Shown here: positions 7-6,012 of the stretch, piece by piece | Layout: each line of letters opens with the position of its first letter | How positions within the stretch are numbered: position 1 is the first letter of the stretch | Assembly: GCA_003648125.1 (NCBI GenBank) | Contig: QMOE01000100.1 | Coordinates: 1 to 7,385 of the forward strand | Length of the DNA: 7,385 bases | Source of the DNA: Chloroflexota bacterium | Lineage (GTDB): Bacteria > Chloroflexota > Anaerolineae > B4-G1 | Direction of reading: 5' to 3' | Position numbers and translations under genes: made by a program | Notes under the pieces: model-generated | Database searches by the model: none | What the model was told of the DNA's origin: nothing | Seen by the model: the letters and a program-made list of their open reading frames with translations, nothing else

Positions 7-459
7 TCATCTCGAGATCCGCAGGAGCAGACTCCGCTTACCCCACACGTAGGCGATGACGAAGGCGCCAAAGGCCAGTACCCAGGCGTGGATCACTAGC
101 TCAGTCGCCACGTCGAAGTTCACCGGCCAATAGAGGCCATTCTGAAGAAAGAAGAGGGCATCCATCAGACCCAGGAAGATGAGCGCGCCCCCGGCCACCA
201 GGCTGAAAAGCAACCCCCAGGGTCGCATTTTCCACAGGCCCACCGCCCCCGCCAGGCAAACGACGGCCATCCACGCATCCGCCGCCGGGAAGGATCGCTC
301 CCACAAGAACCAACCTTCACATTCCCGGGCCAGGAACGACTGGCTCTGCCCCTCGTAGTCGGCGAAAAAGACCACCCAGAAAGCCATCGTCAGCACAGCG
401 GTGACGACCATCAAAATGGCAACGACAGTAACTCCCGCCGGGCGTGTAGTCTCACCCAT
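7..459 (-). CDS. Small four-helix integral membrane protein, function unknown
   Basis: This 150-residue protein has four hydrophobic segments at about residues 9-33, 60-77, 81-105 and 118-140. Basic residues sit at the N-terminus (R6), between helices 2 and 3 (K77, R79) and at the C-terminus (K141, R142, R147, R150). By the positive-inside rule both ends are therefore cytoplasmic. The first outside loop (about 34-59) is acidic and aromatic and carries one Cys. The ATG start overlaps the end of the upstream CHAT receptor gene by 8 bases and has a strong purine-rich ribosome binding site inside that gene, so the two are very likely co-translated. I recognise no family. Because it is coupled to a CHAT protease it could be a membrane effector, a protease substrate or an accessory subunit, but this is inference from position alone. 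The gene is complete, with a TGA stop near the window edge. Confidence 0.85.
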   Translation of the reverse strand: MGETTRPAGVTVVAILMVVTAVLTMAFWVVFFADYEGQSQSFLARECEGWFLWERSFPAADAWMAVVCLAGAVGLWKMRPWGLLFSLVAGGALIFLGLMDALFFLQNGLYWPVNFDVATELVIHAWVLAFGAFVIAYVWGKRSLLLRISR

Positions 460-3400
460 GTATCTCCCCTCCCAATTTCATCTGGCGGCGCACAAATTCC
501 CGCACGCGGCTGCGCGCCGTGCGCCACACGTGTAACCATTCAGCTCCCACGAAGCGGAACAGCCTGCCTTCTCTGGTCTGCATGTAGAGTACAGGGCTGC
601 CCCAGTCACGACTCTCGACACCTCGTTCGGCGTTGAGAATCGCATTTCGCGCTTTGGCGATGGCGTAATCCACCTGTCCGGCGCGGAACAGGGCCTCGTA
701 GAATTTGGCGGCGAACAGCCTCGCCGCGTCGTCGTTGATAGGAAACTGCATCCCCACTGCGGCGAGCAGTTGTCCCCTGCGCACCAATACCGGCGCCAGG
801 CCCAGCGTCGCCTGGGCACTCTCGATGGTGGCGGTCTGACAGGCGTTCAGCACAACTAACGCTGGCACGCGCACGCGACCAGGCCCCAGCCGTCCGGCGA
901 ACAAAGCGCTCAGCCGTTCCTCGTCCACGTCTTCATGCCAACCGCCTTCATCCTCCAGACACAGGTAAGACTGGGCATCCCCCACCTTCCCGTGGGCGAT
1001 GAAGTGCACGATGTCCCATCCTTCGTCTGCGCCCAGCCGGGAATCCAGCGCGTCCATCGTGGATTTATCGTCCCGCTCAAGGAACTCCCATTCCATCTCG
1101 CCGCGCTCGACGAGAGATTTCCACACCTCCTCCAGCCGTCTTCGCTCTGCGGAAAGCCTCAGCGGTGCCAGGTCCCGTGGGCTGGAAGCCACTACCAGGA
1201 TGCGCAGCGGTCGGGGGACACGGCGCGGTTCGAGGGGAGGGGCATCCGCGGCCACAGGCAAATCGCGCACCAGGGCCGTCTGTGGTGAAGCGCCCAGAAA
1301 GCGCGGCGGCCGGCCGCCATAGGCATATTCCCAGGGCAGGGCTGCCAGATCGCGGGCGCTCTCCTCGAAACGCAGGCGCAAGCGGAGGGCGTGTCTATCC
1401 ACCAGAGCGGCCAGTTCGCCGTGGAATAGGGTCTCGAACATGCGGCGGCCCAGGTAGCGCAGCGCATCCTCACTAGCGCGGCCCTCTTCTAAATCGGCCA
1501 GAACAGAACGCACAACTCGCTCTACCAGGGCTTCCACCTCTGTCGCGCTCACGTCGGCAGATGCAATCTCGTGGCCCTCCGCGCGGGCACGGACGTGCAA
1601 CCCGGCTTCGTCCTGGGAGAGAGTAAGTTCCACATCCCGATAACGCTGCTCCACGGCGATGCTGGTGACGAACACGTACAGCGCCACGCCGAGCACCGCC
1701 GCTAAGATCAAGCCGCCGGGTACGATGATGTAGGGCACTTTCCAGAAGGGGCGCGGTTTGACCACTATTTCGAGCGCTGCTTCTTCAGAGGCGTTCAGGT
1801 CCGGATCGAGGGCCTGCACCCGCAGGTGATACACGCGCTCGCCGATCACGTCGCGATAGTGCAAGGGGAGCGCCAACGAATTGCTGATGGCGAACCCGTG
1901 GGTTAAGGTCTGCCCGGTTTGCAAAGAGTATGTGTAGCGCAGGCGTTCGGAGTTGACTCGGAAGTCGGCAGCGGCGAGCTTTACGGGTAGGTCGGCTTTA
2001 TGATAAGAGCGAGTGATGCGCCGCTCGCCTTCCACACCGAATTCCAGCCGGGGGGCGCGCTCGCTGGGCCGGTAATGAGTCAGACCGGCCTCGGTGCCGA
2101 ACCAGAAGTCACCACTCGCGTCGCGAAGGATGGCAAAGACAACATCGCTGGCCAGGCCATCGGCTGCACGGAACGCGGGAACGTCCCACACAGCATCCTC
2201 GCCGCGCACGTAGGGGTACACTCCGGCATCGGTGCCCAGCCACAGGTTGCCATCCGCGTCGCCAACGATGGCGTAAACTGCCCGATCCTCCAGATAGCGG
2301 CGGTCGCAGTGTGGCTGTGCTTCGTCCGAGCAGCGCACCAGGCCACCTTCCGTGCCGAACCACAGGTTTCCCCTGAGATCGGCGAAGATGGCGTAAACCC
2401 GCCTCTCGTCGGGCTGTATGCCCGTGTCCTGGAACTCCGCCGGCGTAAGTATATCTGTGTAGCGATATACTTCGTGGAACGTGCTGAGCCACATTCCTCC
2501 GGCTGAATCCTGCCCCAGGGCCTGCACGTCTTCTTTGAGTTCGTGGTGCAGCGCCGTGCCGTCGTAACGCAGAAGCCCACTACCGGCGGCGATCCACAGT
2601 TCATCACTGTCGGGGTCTGACCATAGGTCCCGCACGTACAGCCCGGCCAGTGCATCGTCAGGGTCACACGTGCTCTCCCGCAACAGGCAGATACCATCAG
2701 CAGTGCCCACCCATAGCGCGTCCTCCCCGGCGACGGCGAGTGCCCGCACCGTGACATGGGGCAGGCCGTCATCGCGGGTGAAGGTGTGCCAAAAGTGCCC
2801 GTCGAAACGGGACACTCCGCTCTCGGTGCCGAGCCACACGCTGCCCTCTTTCGCATCCTGCCAGATGGCTTGCACTACGTGACCAATCAGCCCATCTACC
2901 GCACCGAAGCTCTGTGTCTCCCCGTTGGAGAATCGAATCACGCCGTCGTTAGTGCCCAGCCATACGGCGTGTTGGGTGTCCTCGGCGATGGTCAGCACCG
3001 GCACATCGGATACCACTTTTTCCAGATGACCATCTGGCTGGCGGCGGAAAACGCCATTCTCCGTGCCGAACCACAGCGCTCCCGTGTGATCGCGCAAAGC
3101 AGCGTGCACCATCCGCGTGCTGGCGGCATCCAGACCATCAACTGGGACAACGCCCGACGAGTTATCGTAGCGATACACCCCGGCCCCCCAGGTGCCCAGC
3201 CAGATGTGCCCCCCGTCATCCTCGGCCAGGCTGGTCACGCGGGGGTCCACCCGCAACCGGGGGTCAACTTCGATCTCCTCTTCACAGGATTCGCCCGCCG
3301 GATCGCAGCGCCGCATCCCACGCGCTGTACCAAACCACAACGCGCCATCGGAGGTCTGGAGCATAGCGGAGACACCTACCAGCTCGGGCACACCGGTAAA

Positions 3401-3742
3401 GGCCTGCGTCGGGGTTGTCTGTCCCGCATCGAGGCGGTAGACTCCCTCCGTTGACCCGACCCACAGCGTGCCGTTGTGGTCGCGCAGGATCGAGCGCACT
3501 CCGCCGATTGAGGGGCTTTTGCTGGCGTGATGGCCGTCGTAGCAGTATAGCCCGTCTCTAGTGCCGAACCACAGGTAGTCTGCGTTCTCGCCGATGGCCC
3601 GCACGTCGGTCAGGGCCAGCCCCTGCACTGCATGGAACGGCTGCGGACCCTGTGCCGTCGTGCTGCACGGCCATAGGAGGAGAGCCAGGAGCGAGAGAGC
3701 AAGAATGTACGTTCGTGGGGAGATTTTCACGCCAGCCATCAT
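452..3742 (-). CDS. Transmembrane receptor: Reg_prop beta-propeller sensor + Y_Y_Y domain + TM + cytoplasmic CHAT (caspase-like) peptidase
   Basis: This 1096-residue protein starts with a signal peptide or anchor (about 1-31; hydrophobic core 13-24). Residues 33-560 hold 13 blade motifs of the form LW(F/L/V)GT..G(V/L)..(Y/F)D, with Trp at 58, 94, 136, 181, 224, 261, 303, 344, 383, 418, 461, 501 and 547. They are spaced 35-46 residues apart, as in Reg_prop (PF07494) arrays of hybrid two-component sensors. Motifs 9 and 10 are degenerate. A Y_Y_Y-like beta domain (PF07495, about 575-662) follows, then one membrane helix (about 669-692). The cytoplasmic part starts with the extension usual for CHAT proteins (about 700-840) and ends in a CHAT domain (PF12770, about 845-1070). 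The putative catalytic dyad is H917 in HFIAHG and C968 in VVLNACQTA. No kinase, receiver or HTH domain is present. The ATG follows the upstream stop by 2 bases with no clear Shine-Dalgarno site, so translation is probably coupled; an in-frame ATG (3739) and GTG (3730) are alternative starts. I infer that ligand binding outside activates proteolysis inside. Ligand and substrate are unknown. Confidence 0.93.
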   Translation of the reverse strand: MMAGVKISPRTYILALSLLALLLWPCSTTAQGPQPFHAVQGLALTDVRAIGENADYLWFGTRDGLYCYDGHHASKSPSIGGVRSILRDHNGTLWVGSTEGVYRLDAGQTTPTQAFTGVPELVGVSAMLQTSDGALWFGTARGMRRCDPAGESCEEEIEVDPRLRVDPRVTSLAEDDGGHIWLGTWGAGVYRYDNSSGVVPVDGLDAASTRMVHAALRDHTGALWFGTENGVFRRQPDGHLEKVVSDVPVLTIAEDTQHAVWLGTNDGVIRFSNGETQSFGAVDGLIGHVVQAIWQDAKEGSVWLGTESGVSRFDGHFWHTFTRDDGLPHVTVRALAVAGEDALWVGTADGICLLRESTCDPDDALAGLYVRDLWSDPDSDELWIAAGSGLLRYDGTALHHELKEDVQALGQDSAGGMWLSTFHEVYRYTDILTPAEFQDTGIQPDERRVYAIFADLRGNLWFGTEGGLVRCSDEAQPHCDRRYLEDRAVYAIVGDADGNLWLGTDAGVYPYVRGEDAVWDVPAFRAADGLASDVVFAILRDASGDFWFGTEAGLTHYRPSERAPRLEFGVEGERRITRSYHKADLPVKLAAADFRVNSERLRYTYSLQTGQTLTHGFAISNSLALPLHYRDVIGERVYHLRVQALDPDLNASEEAALEIVVKPRPFWKVPYIIVPGGLILAAVLGVALYVFVTSIAVEQRYRDVELTLSQDEAGLHVRARAEGHEIASADVSATEVEALVERVVRSVLADLEEGRASEDALRYLGRRMFETLFHGELAALVDRHALRLRLRFEESARDLAALPWEYAYGGRPPRFLGASPQTALVRDLPVAADAPPLEPRRVPRPLRILVVASSPRDLAPLRLSAERRRLEEVWKSLVERGEMEWEFLERDDKSTMDALDSRLGADEGWDIVHFIAHGKVGDAQSYLCLEDEGGWHEDVDEERLSALFAGRLGPGRVRVPALVVLNACQTATIESAQATLGLAPVLVRRGQLLAAVGMQFPINDDAARLFAAKFYEALFRAGQVDYAIAKARNAILNAERGVESRDWGSPVLYMQTREGRLFRFVGAEWLHVWRTARSRVREFVRRQMKLGGEIHG
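464..473 (-). promoter_or_regulatory. Strong ribosome binding site of the four-helix membrane protein, inside the CHAT gene
   Basis: The minus strand reads GGGAGGGGAG here. The GGAGG core at 468-472 lies 8 bases before the ATG at 459, ideal Shine-Dalgarno spacing. It lies in the last codons of the CHAT receptor gene, which fixes the start and supports translational coupling. Confidence 0.75.
2063..3646 (-). repeat. Degenerate tandem repeat encoding the beta-propeller blades
   Basis: Roughly 105-140 base units, each encoding one blade, recur 13 times in this part of the receptor gene. On the plus strand the most conserved piece is GTGCCGAACCACAG, which occurs identically at 2352-2365, 3063-3076 and 3561-3574, with close variants at most other blades (for example near 2094, 2826, 2952 and 3190). 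Divergence between units is substantial, so the array is old rather than a recent expansion. The short identical stretches could still allow slippage, recombination or assembly errors. Confidence 0.85.
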
Positions 3743-3744
3743 AA

Positions 3745-4653
3745 TCAGGGCGCTTGCTTTTCCAGATAGCCCGACTCTTCGTTATAAACGTACAGGCTGC
3801 GCTCAAATTCAACTATGATGTCCTGGAGAGAGTCCACGTCGCCGCTCACCCCGATCAAGACGATGCAATCCGGCAGATCGCCAGCGTCCCCGGCCACCGC
3901 CAACCGTTCCCGCACTATAGACACATCGGGAATGAACTCCTGGGCGGCCTCCACCCCCTGCTCCTCGAAACTGACCCTGGTCAACTCGGCAACCTCGCCA
4001 TAGGGCGCCGCCTCAGACCCCAGGATGAGGAAAACCGTTCGGGGGTTCTCATTGGCGATGATCTGTTTCGTGCTTTCGTAGATTCTCGCTTCCAAATCCT
4101 GTAGAGGGGGCTGCGTCGGCGCTGCCACTTGTGCCGTGGAGACGAGGGCCAGCAAGCTGGCACTCCAGATTTCGCCGTCAGCCCACTCGGGATCAGATTT
4201 CAGTTTGGCTTCCCCGGCAACAGGCCAGTTGTTGGTGGACGGATCGAAACGATGGATGGGCAGGGCGCGATTCGCCAGTCCCTGATTCTTGAGCTGCACG
4301 CCCTTCTGTCCAACGTGGATGTCCTTGATCGTAATTGTGGGCGGCGCTACTGACTTCACCCCTGACTTGAGCTTGATCTCGAAGACGCGGAGAATCTGGG
4401 TGACATCCCCGGAGATGTCCTGAGGTTTGGGATAGCGCGAATCGCCCTCCGAAACCAATTCCACGTCGGCGATTTTGTTAAGCTGCTTCTCATCTCCCTT
4501 GAGAGTGACATCCCCTCCACTGAATGAGCGGGTTGTGGTCTTCGTCGTTGGCGATGTGGGCGTTGCCGGACCGGTTCCACAGCACGAGCACTGCGCGAGC
4601 GCCACCAGTAGCGCGATAAGCAGTACATTGGTAAGTCCGTATAAGGTTTTCAT
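3745..4653 (-). CDS. Secreted, probably membrane-anchored protein with Thr/Pro linker and two uncharacterised domains
   Basis: This 302-residue protein has a basic N-terminus and a hydrophobic core (about 8-20) followed by a Cys-rich site with C22, C24 and C25. The context LAQC resembles a lipobox but has Gln at -1, so lipid attachment at C22 is plausible, not certain. A Thr/Pro/Ser-rich linker (about 27-44) follows, typical of surface tethers. Residues about 46-175 look beta-rich, with a segment around 127-172 recalling extracytoplasmic beta-sandwich modules (weak). Residues about 184-302 look alpha/beta, with hydrophobic strands at 206-212 and 263-269 and helices between. I recognise no enzyme motif or named family. 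The ATG has a GGAG site (4660-4663) 6 bases upstream. The stop lies 2 bases before the CHAT receptor start, so the proteins are probably made together. An extracytoplasmic ligand-binding partner of the propeller sensor is one reading (inference). Confidence 0.85.
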   Translation of the reverse strand: MKTLYGLTNVLLIALLVALAQCSCCGTGPATPTSPTTKTTTRSFSGGDVTLKGDEKQLNKIADVELVSEGDSRYPKPQDISGDVTQILRVFEIKLKSGVKSVAPPTITIKDIHVGQKGVQLKNQGLANRALPIHRFDPSTNNWPVAGEAKLKSDPEWADGEIWSASLLALVSTAQVAAPTQPPLQDLEARIYESTKQIIANENPRTVFLILGSEAAPYGEVAELTRVSFEEQGVEAAQEFIPDVSIVRERLAVAGDAGDLPDCIVLIGVSGDVDSLQDIIVEFERSLYVYNEESGYLEKQAP

Positions 4654-4720: not shown

Positions 4721-5575
4721 TCAGCCCTCCGGCATCGCTCCCGGCGGCCAGCACATCGGCACTTTGGGGATAGTATCCTCGTGGCCCATCGCCCGCTCAA
4801 TGGCCCACAGATAACTTTCCTCGCCGATGAGGTGCATCCCGCCATCCACGGCCAGCGAGTGTCCTGTGATCCAGTCCGACCACTCCGAGGCCAGGAAAGC
4901 GGCGGCTTTGGCCACGTCCTCCGGCTGGCCGAAGCGTCCGAAAGGCACCTGCTTGAGATGAGCGGCGCGCAGTTCGGGGATCATAGTCACCTCCTCGGTC
5001 AGCGCCGTCTCAATCATGCCCGGAGCCAGGGCGTTGACGTGGATGCCGTAGGGAGCCAGCTCCAGCGCGGCGGCGCGGGTGAACATCATCACCCCACCTT
5101 TGGAAGCGGAGTAGTGTGCCTCGCCGGCCAGGGGCACGCTCTCGTTGATGGACGACAGATTGATGATCTTCCCCCGCCGCCCGTTCTCGATCCACCAGCG
5201 GGCCACAGCGCGGGTGGTGAGGAAGATGCCCTTGAGATTGACCCCCAGCACCCAGTCCCACTCCTCCTCTAGCATCTCGATGATGGGTGATTCCGTGCCC
5301 ACCCCGGCCGAGTTGACCAGCACGTTCACCCCGCCGAAGCGTTCCAGCGTGGCCTGGAGCATGGCCTCCACCTGTTCCGCGTCCTGGACGTCCACCTCCA
5401 CGGCCAGGGCGGGATAGCCCTGTTCCTCTAATTCGGCGACTACCTCCTCGGCAGCCGCCAGCTCAACGTCGGCTACGACGACGCTTGCTCCCAGGTGGGC
5501 GAACATCCGCGCGATCCCCCGCCCGATTCCTGACCCCGCGCCGGTGATGATGGCGATTTTGTTGCTCAGATCCAT
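4721..5575 (-). CDS. Short-chain dehydrogenase/reductase (SDR), classical NAD(P)-dependent oxidoreductase
   Basis: This 284-residue protein (from the ATG) is a classical SDR that interconverts an alcohol and a carbonyl with NAD(P)(H) in the cytoplasm. The TGAGSGIG cofactor motif is at 11-18. D36 at the end of the second strand favours NAD(H). D62 binds the adenine region, and NSAG at 88-91 replaces the usual NNAG. The catalytic set is complete: N113, S142, Y155 and K159. The VDGG motif at 243-246 closes the Rossmann fold. A tail of about 35 residues follows, longer than in FabG-like enzymes. I chose the ATG at 5575 because the fold begins directly after it and a GAGG site lies 6 bases upstream. 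A GTG at 5587 overlapping the SCP2 stop would add four residues but has no room for a ribosome binding site. The substrate is not evident; the neighbouring zinc dehydrogenase and ThDP enzyme suggest polyol or hydroxy-acid metabolism (inference). Confidence 0.95.
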   Translation of the reverse strand: MDLSNKIAIITGAGSGIGRGIARMFAHLGASVVVADVELAAAEEVVAELEEQGYPALAVEVDVQDAEQVEAMLQATLERFGGVNVLVNSAGVGTESPIIEMLEEEWDWVLGVNLKGIFLTTRAVARWWIENGRRGKIINLSSINESVPLAGEAHYSASKGGVMMFTRAAALELAPYGIHVNALAPGMIETALTEEVTMIPELRAAHLKQVPFGRFGQPEDVAKAAAFLASEWSDWITGHSLAVDGGMHLIGEESYLWAIERAMGHEDTIPKVPMCWPPGAMPEG

Positions 5576-5583
5576 GTTACGCC

Positions 5584-6012
5584 TCACTCCCCGCCAAAAT
5601 TGTACTGGGCATACTCCCCCTCGAACTCCGTGGGGATAGTGCGCAGAATCTCCACCCAGCGAATGGTGGAATCGGCACCTTTCAGCAATTGCAGGAAATT
5701 GCCCTTGATCTTGAGCTTGCGCATGGTGAACGCTTTATTGGGACCTAGCTTGCCGCGCAGGATGTCCACCCACACCCCATAAGGGCCGACCAGGGTAAAC
5801 GTCGTTGGCCGCTCGCCAACCCATATATCCGAAATCTGACCGTGGTCCACCTGGAAGCCAATAGTCAGGGTTTCGTTCACTCCCTTTTTGGGCTCGGCTC
5901 GAATGACCAGGGTGTACGATTCGTAATCGTCCTTGATCATCTCGCAGTAGGTCGCGTCAGCATTGCTGAGCCGCTTGACCTCTTCCAGGTACTCTGAGCT
6001 TCCGAGTTTCAT
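5584..6012 (-). CDS. SCP2 sterol-binding-domain protein (sterol carrier protein 2-like), stand-alone
   Basis: This 142-residue soluble protein resembles the SCP2 family (PF02036), which forms a hydrophobic pocket for lipids, acyl chains or other apolar ligands. The best evidence is the C-terminal half (about 70-125). It has the family pattern of a short strand segment, an aromatic residue before the helix with W-V-D-I-L and G-K-L (about 78-90), then a basic K-L-K-I-K-G strand and a final helix. There is no signal peptide or membrane segment. The ATG is preceded by GGGAGG (6020-6025) at 7 bases. It lies 53 bases after the zinc dehydrogenase, and the SDR start lies 8 bases beyond its stop. It may present or bind an apolar intermediate for the flanking dehydrogenases, but that is inferred from position only. 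The family call is from pattern recognition and is moderately confident. Confidence 0.8.
   Translation of the reverse strand: MKLGSSEYLEEVKRLSNADATYCEMIKDDYESYTLVIRAEPKKGVNETLTIGFQVDHGQISDIWVGERPTTFTLVGPYGVWVDILRGKLGPNKAFTMRKLKIKGNFLQLLKGADSTIRWVEILRTIPTEFEGEYAQYNFGGE

What the first reader, a model, noticed from the sequence alone, without database searches (positions are those of the whole stretch)
452..3742. One-component transmembrane protease receptor: hybrid-two-component sensor fused to a CHAT caspase-like domain
Seen: 13 propeller blade motifs, a Y_Y_Y-like domain, one membrane helix, then a CHAT domain with H917 and C968, all in one unbroken frame. Known: Reg_prop/Y_Y_Y sensors normally feed a histidine kinase, a cyclic-nucleotide enzyme or a DNA-binding output; CHAT peptidases usually pair with TPRs or other adaptors and can act in regulated proteolysis and cell-death-type defence (Csx29 in type III-E CRISPR, proteases that activate bacterial gasdermins). 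Inferred: this protein senses an outside molecule and responds with proteolysis inside, bypassing phosphorelay and transcription. This is the best candidate in the window for an undescribed signalling system.
Basis: partly seen in the sequence, partly recalled or inferred. Interest (0 to 1): 0.78.

Follow-up and report, generated by a model that had tools for sequence, protein, structure and literature searches.

The report
Membrane receptor ending in protease domain
A bacterial membrane protein joins an outside sensor of a kind usually wired to kinases to an inside caspase-like protease domain; it looks like a conserved but untested way to turn an outside signal directly into protein cutting.

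The parts
452..3742 (-). Receptor gene P1 (1096 aa): signal peptide - Reg_prop propellers - Ig-like domain - TM - CHAT
3650..3742 (-). Residues 1-31: N-terminal signal peptide (positive n-region, hydrophobic core; cleavage site not computed)
   Evidence: sequence; hydropathy 12-30. A hydrophobic N-terminus is seen in 20 of the 25 family proteins at cut-offs of 1.4-1.7
2060..3646 (-). Residues 33-561: Reg_prop beta-propellers, 12-13 blade motifs
   Evidence: Pfam E 2.5e-41; fold match to BT4673/BT3049/BT4663
1751..2050 (-). Residues 565-664: Ig-like beta domain in the Y_Y_Y position
   Evidence: model strands; hybrid-two-component ectodomains align through residue 663-666; Pfam Y_Y_Y not significant
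1649..1738 (-). Residues 669-698: single transmembrane helix
   Evidence: hydropathy 2.5; helix 676-696 in model
1208..1648 (-). Residues 699-845: membrane-proximal part of the CHAT unit (boundary is my reading of the model; called pseudo-protease-like by recalled comparison with separase/Csx29)
   Evidence: model residues 2 onward align to TPR-CHAT/Csx29 from 397/420 and to separase
548..1207 (-). Residues 846-1065: catalytic CHAT part
   Evidence: Pfam CHAT 764-1052; pLDDT 92, fold matches
992..994 (-). H917, predicted catalytic histidine
   Evidence: 26 of 26 family rows; 93 of 94 CHAT rows
839..841 (-). C968, predicted catalytic cysteine
   Evidence: 26 of 26 family rows; 90 of 94 CHAT rows
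455..547 (-). Residues 1066-1096: cationic amphipathic C-terminal helix of the close clade
   Evidence: 21-35 residues in 11 close rows, 0-1 in the 15 others
3745..4653 (-). P3: 302-aa predicted secreted or lipid-anchored protein, 2 nt upstream of P1, co-inherited
   Evidence: hydrophobic N-terminus; C22 and C25 invariant in 15 rows; present in 2 of 298 genomes of the class, both holding the receptor; absent with P1 from three related sites
7..459 (-). P2: 150-aa 4-TM protein, overlaps the end of P1 by 8 nt; part of the SCP2-SDR gene row
4721..5587 (-). SDR-family dehydrogenase, flank of the inserted pair (context)
5584..6012 (-). SCP-2 sterol-transfer-family protein (context)

Best explanation
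A one-component transmembrane receptor protease. Outside the cell the Reg_prop propellers with their Ig-like stalk bind a ligand, possibly presented or buffered by the co-inherited secreted protein P3. By analogy with BT4663 the ectodomain works as a dimer, and ligand changes the packing of the two stalks and membrane helices. No HAMP or PAS domain was matched between membrane and output: the helix runs within a few residues into the first part of the CHAT unit. By analogy with Csx29, where a remote binding event reorders the catalytic residues, this movement sets H917/C968 and lets the domain cut one or a few specific cytoplasmic proteins, most likely a regulator. The signal would then cross the membrane without phosphorelay or second messenger. 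Shown here: anatomy, conservation, predicted folds, linkage with P3. Supported but indirect: CHAT inside the cell. Inferred: dimer, ligand control, protease activity, substrate class.
Confidence: 0.62

Rival explanations
1. The CHAT domain is a scaffold or a self-cleaving release switch rather than a protease of other proteins: ligand triggers autoproteolysis near the membrane or of the cationic C-terminal tail, freeing a fragment that acts elsewhere.
Against: The dyad is kept in 26 of 26 family rows, and 15 of those rows lack the tail, so the tail cannot be the common target.
Confidence: 0.2
2. A defence or cell-death receptor: it senses phage or contact at the surface and the CHAT protease triggers suicide or activates a killer protein.
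For: CHAT proteins act in type III-E CRISPR (PMC10028731, passages) and as SAVED-CHAT (8tl0). Best PADLOC model: SAVED_CHAT, E 5.7e-6.
Against: Neighbours look metabolic or housekeeping: SDR, SCP2, alcohol dehydrogenase in the window; acetolactate-synthase-like, tRNA-thiolation-like and PPDK-regulator genes in L001. None of three neighbours scanned (P0002-P0004) matches PADLOC. The closest sensor folds include a heparin/heparan sulphate receptor.
Confidence: 0.13
3. Degenerate or non-signalling protein: CHAT is a relic and the protein is a surface scaffold.
For: No activity shown for the family. 49 of the 93 proteins were put in neither membrane class by a strict hydropathy cut, so CHAT does not demand membrane signalling.
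Against: dN/dS 0.18-0.20, dyad 26/26, confident protease-type fold.
Confidence: 0.05

Closest known systems
Bacteroides hybrid two-component sensors BT4663/BT3049/BT4673
   Same: Ectodomain fold from first blade to the membrane, N-terminal signal sequence (recalled for them), stalk leading to a membrane helix
   Different: Output is CHAT; no histidine kinase, receiver or DNA-binding domain matched
Csx29 / TPR-CHAT (Craspase)
   Different: Csx29 has TPRs and is switched by an RNA-guided complex; here no TPR matched and a membrane receptor sits in front
SAVED-CHAT (8tl0)
   Same: Sensor fused directly to CHAT; the only PDB sequence matched by the family profile (E 1.8e-27)
   Different: Intracellular sensor of a nucleotide messenger (recalled); forms filaments (PDB title)
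HetF of heterocyst-forming cyanobacteria
   Same: CHAT protein with one predicted transmembrane segment (PMC8406250, passages)
   Different: CHAT is N-terminal, TPRs present; here only 33.9 bits against a cut-off of 1200
Cyanobacterial metacaspase receptors (metacaspase with CHASE2 or ANF_receptor)
   Same: Outside receptor plus cytoplasmic caspase-fold enzyme, proposed in 2012 (PMC3501461, passages)
   Different: Metacaspase (C14) family, other sensors, enzyme first in the CHASE2 case
DdvA transmembrane anti-sigma factor (8rot, 8rw5)
   Different: From recall: its CHAT-like part is periplasmic with an incomplete active site and the output is an anti-sigma domain

Membership tests
CHAT peptidases (PF12770) | Profile match above curated cut-off | tested here: met
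   98.5 bits, cut-off 24; matched in 26 of 26 family rows at E<=0.05
CHAT peptidases (PF12770) | Conserved His and Cys of the dyad | tested here: met
   H917, C968; aligned with 8tl0
CHAT peptidases (PF12770) | Caspase/separase-type fold | tested here: met
   predicted model and fold matches
CHAT peptidases (PF12770) | Peptidase activity | not testable with these tools
   needs biochemistry
CHAT peptidases (PF12770) | Linked TPR repeats (name-giving, not universal) | tested here: not met
   no TPR family listed at E<=1
Hybrid two-component system receptors | Reg_prop propeller ectodomain | tested here: met
Hybrid two-component system receptors | Y_Y_Y domain | tested here: inconclusive
   no Pfam match, 2 of 26 rows weakly, but the structure aligns through that position
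Hybrid two-component system receptors | Histidine kinase and receiver output | tested here: not met
   no such family listed at E<=1
Csx29 / Craspase | TPR domain | tested here: not met
Csx29 / Craspase | Cas7-11 partner gene | tested here: inconclusive
   none among the six window proteins scanned; the window's genome is not held
HetF (NF045509) | Score above NCBIfam equivalog cut-off | tested here: not met
   33.9 bits against 1200
Metacaspases (Peptidase C14) | C14 profile match | tested here: not met
   no Peptidase_C14 listed at E<=1

The most novel reading that the evidence does not exclude
Chloroflexota, and probably other phyla, use the CHAT protease as a general output of membrane receptors, a signalling class parallel to histidine kinases and receptor cyclases. 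Sensors are exchanged freely (Reg_prop, periplasmic-binding, Kelch, PD40, CBM9, Big_2, PASTA, NHL, FGE-sulfatase) and attached on either side of the membrane helix, with CHAT inside. The window's protein stands for the sensor-first branch, with its own secreted co-receptor P3.
Probability: 0.45. Interest if true: 0.82.

Novelty: new variant of a known kind. Interest (0 to 1): 0.62.

Why it matters
Bacterial transmembrane signalling is described mainly in terms of phosphorylation, cyclic nucleotides and membrane-bound transcription regulators. A receptor whose output is regulated proteolysis would add a direct, irreversible mode, conceptually like a death receptor joined to its caspase. The ectodomain belongs to a structurally known class and the protease to one whose allosteric switch has been seen by cryo-EM, so how an outside signal could turn on a caspase-fold protease becomes testable in one polypeptide.

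Tried and rejected
Assembly chimera: rejected. Of 9 close relatives, 8 are full length (1085-1118 aa) and carry the same fusion on other contigs; one (P0012) is a 697-aa fragment. Two of the 9 lie in named MAG contigs (L001, L002).

Three-gene receptor operon (P3-P1-P2): my first reading, from spacing and conservation in L001 and L002. Dropped for P2: its homologues sit next to SDR in G082, G126 and G087 with neither P3 nor P1 found in those stretches. In three further stretches with weaker P2 matches (L119-L121) neither SDR nor SCP2 was found.

TPR-CHAT or CRISPR accessory: no TPR in P1 and no CRISPR family among the window proteins scanned. PorZ-like secretion part: 72.4 bits against a cut-off of 260; propeller similarity only.

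Plasmid carriage: tblastn in 72,556 plasmid records gave 105 records, none covering 80% of the query. The ten listed match the propeller part; five of the ten are annotated as cyclases or kinases.

The full-length fold searches were filled by propellers and said nothing about CHAT, so that half was modelled alone.

Weak points. The protein searches scored only the 7991-7998 candidates sharing most words. The tree is of the quick type; 2 of the 93 proteins (several stretches or a short one) were left out of it and three loci added, 94 rows in all; its listed long branches include no Reg_prop row. That L068 is an independent union follows from the CHAT tree only; no propeller tree was made. Genome searches scored at most two candidates per genome and cut the match list, so matches across both modules in G001, G002 and G076 only are a lower bound. 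Membrane helices were called by hydropathy alone; coiled coils were not tested. The 12 CHAT-first proteins sent to Pfam were picked by me, mostly because a domain was already noted, so 10 of 12 is not a rate. P0013 and L002 are the same contig, hence 26 rows but 25 proteins.
Full report
WHAT IS THERE. The finding gives no strand; the gene reads on the minus strand, 3742 down to 452, 1096 codons without a stop. Pfam finds Reg_prop (E 2.5e-41) and CHAT (residues 764-1052, E 6.3e-28), both above cut-off. A strict pattern finds 12 blade motifs, a looser one 13. Hydrophobic stretches: one at the N-terminus (12-30) and one helix at about 669-698. Residue 917 is His (HFIAHG) and 968 is Cys (LNAC).

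THE FAMILY. A search with residues 600-1096 listed 93 proteins, the query included (candidates capped). Nine close ones have 75-85% identity, eight of them full length. P0014-P0016 and P0045-P0046 are distant and carry the same pair of domains. A second search, from P0045, listed 16 proteins with the query, 11 of which (P0045, P0046, P0111-P0119) carry Reg_prop and CHAT. Together 26 rows, 25 distinct proteins, some of them fragments. H917 and C968 are kept in 26 of 26. Among 94 CHAT rows from the 93 proteins, His is kept in 93 and Cys in 90. In a quick maximum-likelihood tree of 94 CHAT domains the 16 sensor-first Reg_prop proteins lie on one side of one branch, SH-aLRT 100; nine subclade-B proteins found later are not in it. 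One protein, L068, has the modules reversed (CHAT 91-386, helix 432-463, Reg_prop beyond) and falls elsewhere, probably an independent union.

TOPOLOGY. By a strict hydropathy cut the 93 proteins divide into 34 CHAT-first with a later helix (32 with at least 80 residues beyond the last helix; a few have more than one helix), 10 sensor-TM-CHAT and 49 neither. The 49 include five Reg_prop proteins whose helix is weak or whose sequence is incomplete. In the 34, Lys and Arg are more numerous on the CHAT side in 32, equal in 2. In subclade B the helix is followed by clusters such as RRWWRAYKR; P0016 has 2 outside against 6 inside. In the window's close clade the rule gives no support: of 9 proteins, 5 have more positive residues on the outer side and 4 are equal. 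There the signal peptide and the relatives decide. Twelve of the 34 were scanned with Pfam, chosen by me. Ten show a known domain beyond the helix: CBM9, periplasmic-binding, Kelch, PD40 (2), Big_2, FGE-sulfatase (2), PASTA, NHL. Two show none.

GENOMIC SETTING. On the minus strand: end of a TPP enzyme (by 94% identity to the acetolactate-synthase-like gene of L001), alcohol dehydrogenase, SCP2, SDR, P3, receptor, P2. L001 has the same order with 61-94% identity; L002, cut by its contig end, has the end of P3, the receptor and P2. P3 (302 aa, hydrophobic N-terminus, C22 and C25 invariant in 15 rows) has 14 relatives, all 61-99% identical, none more distant. Three of them sit on contigs of the same lengths as contigs with close receptors (7106, 50826, 20094), which I take to be the same contigs. 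In 298 genomes of the class only G001 and G002, both with the receptor, have P3. Its C-terminal domain is repeated in P0098, P0102, P0103 and, cut short, P0101. P2 has matches in 13 of 298 genomes. In the three that match at 62-69% without the receptor nearby (G082, G126, G087), SCP2, SDR and P2 follow each other, with SDR and P2 about 30-40 nt apart or overlapping by 4. So P3 and the receptor came, or were lost, as a pair in an existing gene row; that they work together is inferred from this. dN/dS: receptor 0.18 (L001) and 0.20 (L002), P3 0.20, P2 0.14 and 0.10, SDR and SCP2 about 0.06.

HOW IT MOST LIKELY WORKS. Ligand at the propellers, perhaps with P3; change of ectodomain packing; a pull or twist on the first part of the CHAT unit, with no HAMP or PAS domain matched between (coiled coils not tested); ordering of the H-C dyad; cleavage of a specific cytoplasmic protein. 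Csx29 shows that a remote event can reorder such a dyad and yield one precise cut in one substrate, an inhibitor of a sigma factor (PMC10028731, passages). A review notes CHAT proteins in the gene neighbourhood of the ECF54 sigma-factor group, proposed to be controlled by proteolysis (PMC8999054, passage). A dedicated regulator as substrate is therefore my preferred guess. The neighbourhood looks metabolic, which speaks for nutrient or polymer sensing rather than defence. The cationic C-terminal helix of the close clade could tether or block the domain; its role is open.

KNOWN OR NEW. The pieces are known. The pairing was not seen described: searches found no paper; one search found one (PMC10907252, passages); one search listed 15 of 443, and passages of PMC8195603 and PMC7159879 were seen. 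The library holds openly licensed papers only. The general idea of a bacterial receptor with a cytoplasmic caspase-fold enzyme was stated in 2012 for metacaspases (PMC3501461, passages), and HetF is a CHAT protein with one predicted transmembrane segment (PMC8406250, passages). Other Reg_prop proteins met here end in cyclases and kinases. Hence a new variant of a known kind, well supported in anatomy, untested in function. What is said of DdvA beyond its PDB title and its role as anti-sigma of DdvS (PMC4374960, passages) is recalled.

Noticed in passing
P0022-P0092: 34 of the 93 proteins are CHAT-first with a later membrane helix; ten of twelve scanned carry Kelch, PD40, CBM9, periplasmic-binding, Big_2, PASTA, NHL or FGE-sulfatase domains beyond it.
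   Followed up: partly
L068 1855-5151: Reversed architecture CHAT-TM-Reg_prop, placed elsewhere in the CHAT tree: probably a second, independent union of the same sensor and output.
   Followed up: partly
window 455-547: Cationic amphipathic C-terminal helix present in the 11 close rows, absent from the other 15 rows with the same domains.
   Followed up: partly
window 3745-4653; P0098, P0101, P0102, P0103: P3 is an orphan predicted secreted protein whose C-terminal domain is tandemly repeated in some relatives.
   Followed up: partly
L116, L117, L118: Sites without the P3-receptor pair: SCP2, SDR and P2 follow each other.
   Followed up: yes
P0062, P0089, one stretch of P0017 (Cys column reads Ser), P0093 (neither His nor Cys): CHAT rows without the full dyad: possible pseudo-proteases or alignment slips.
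   Followed up: no
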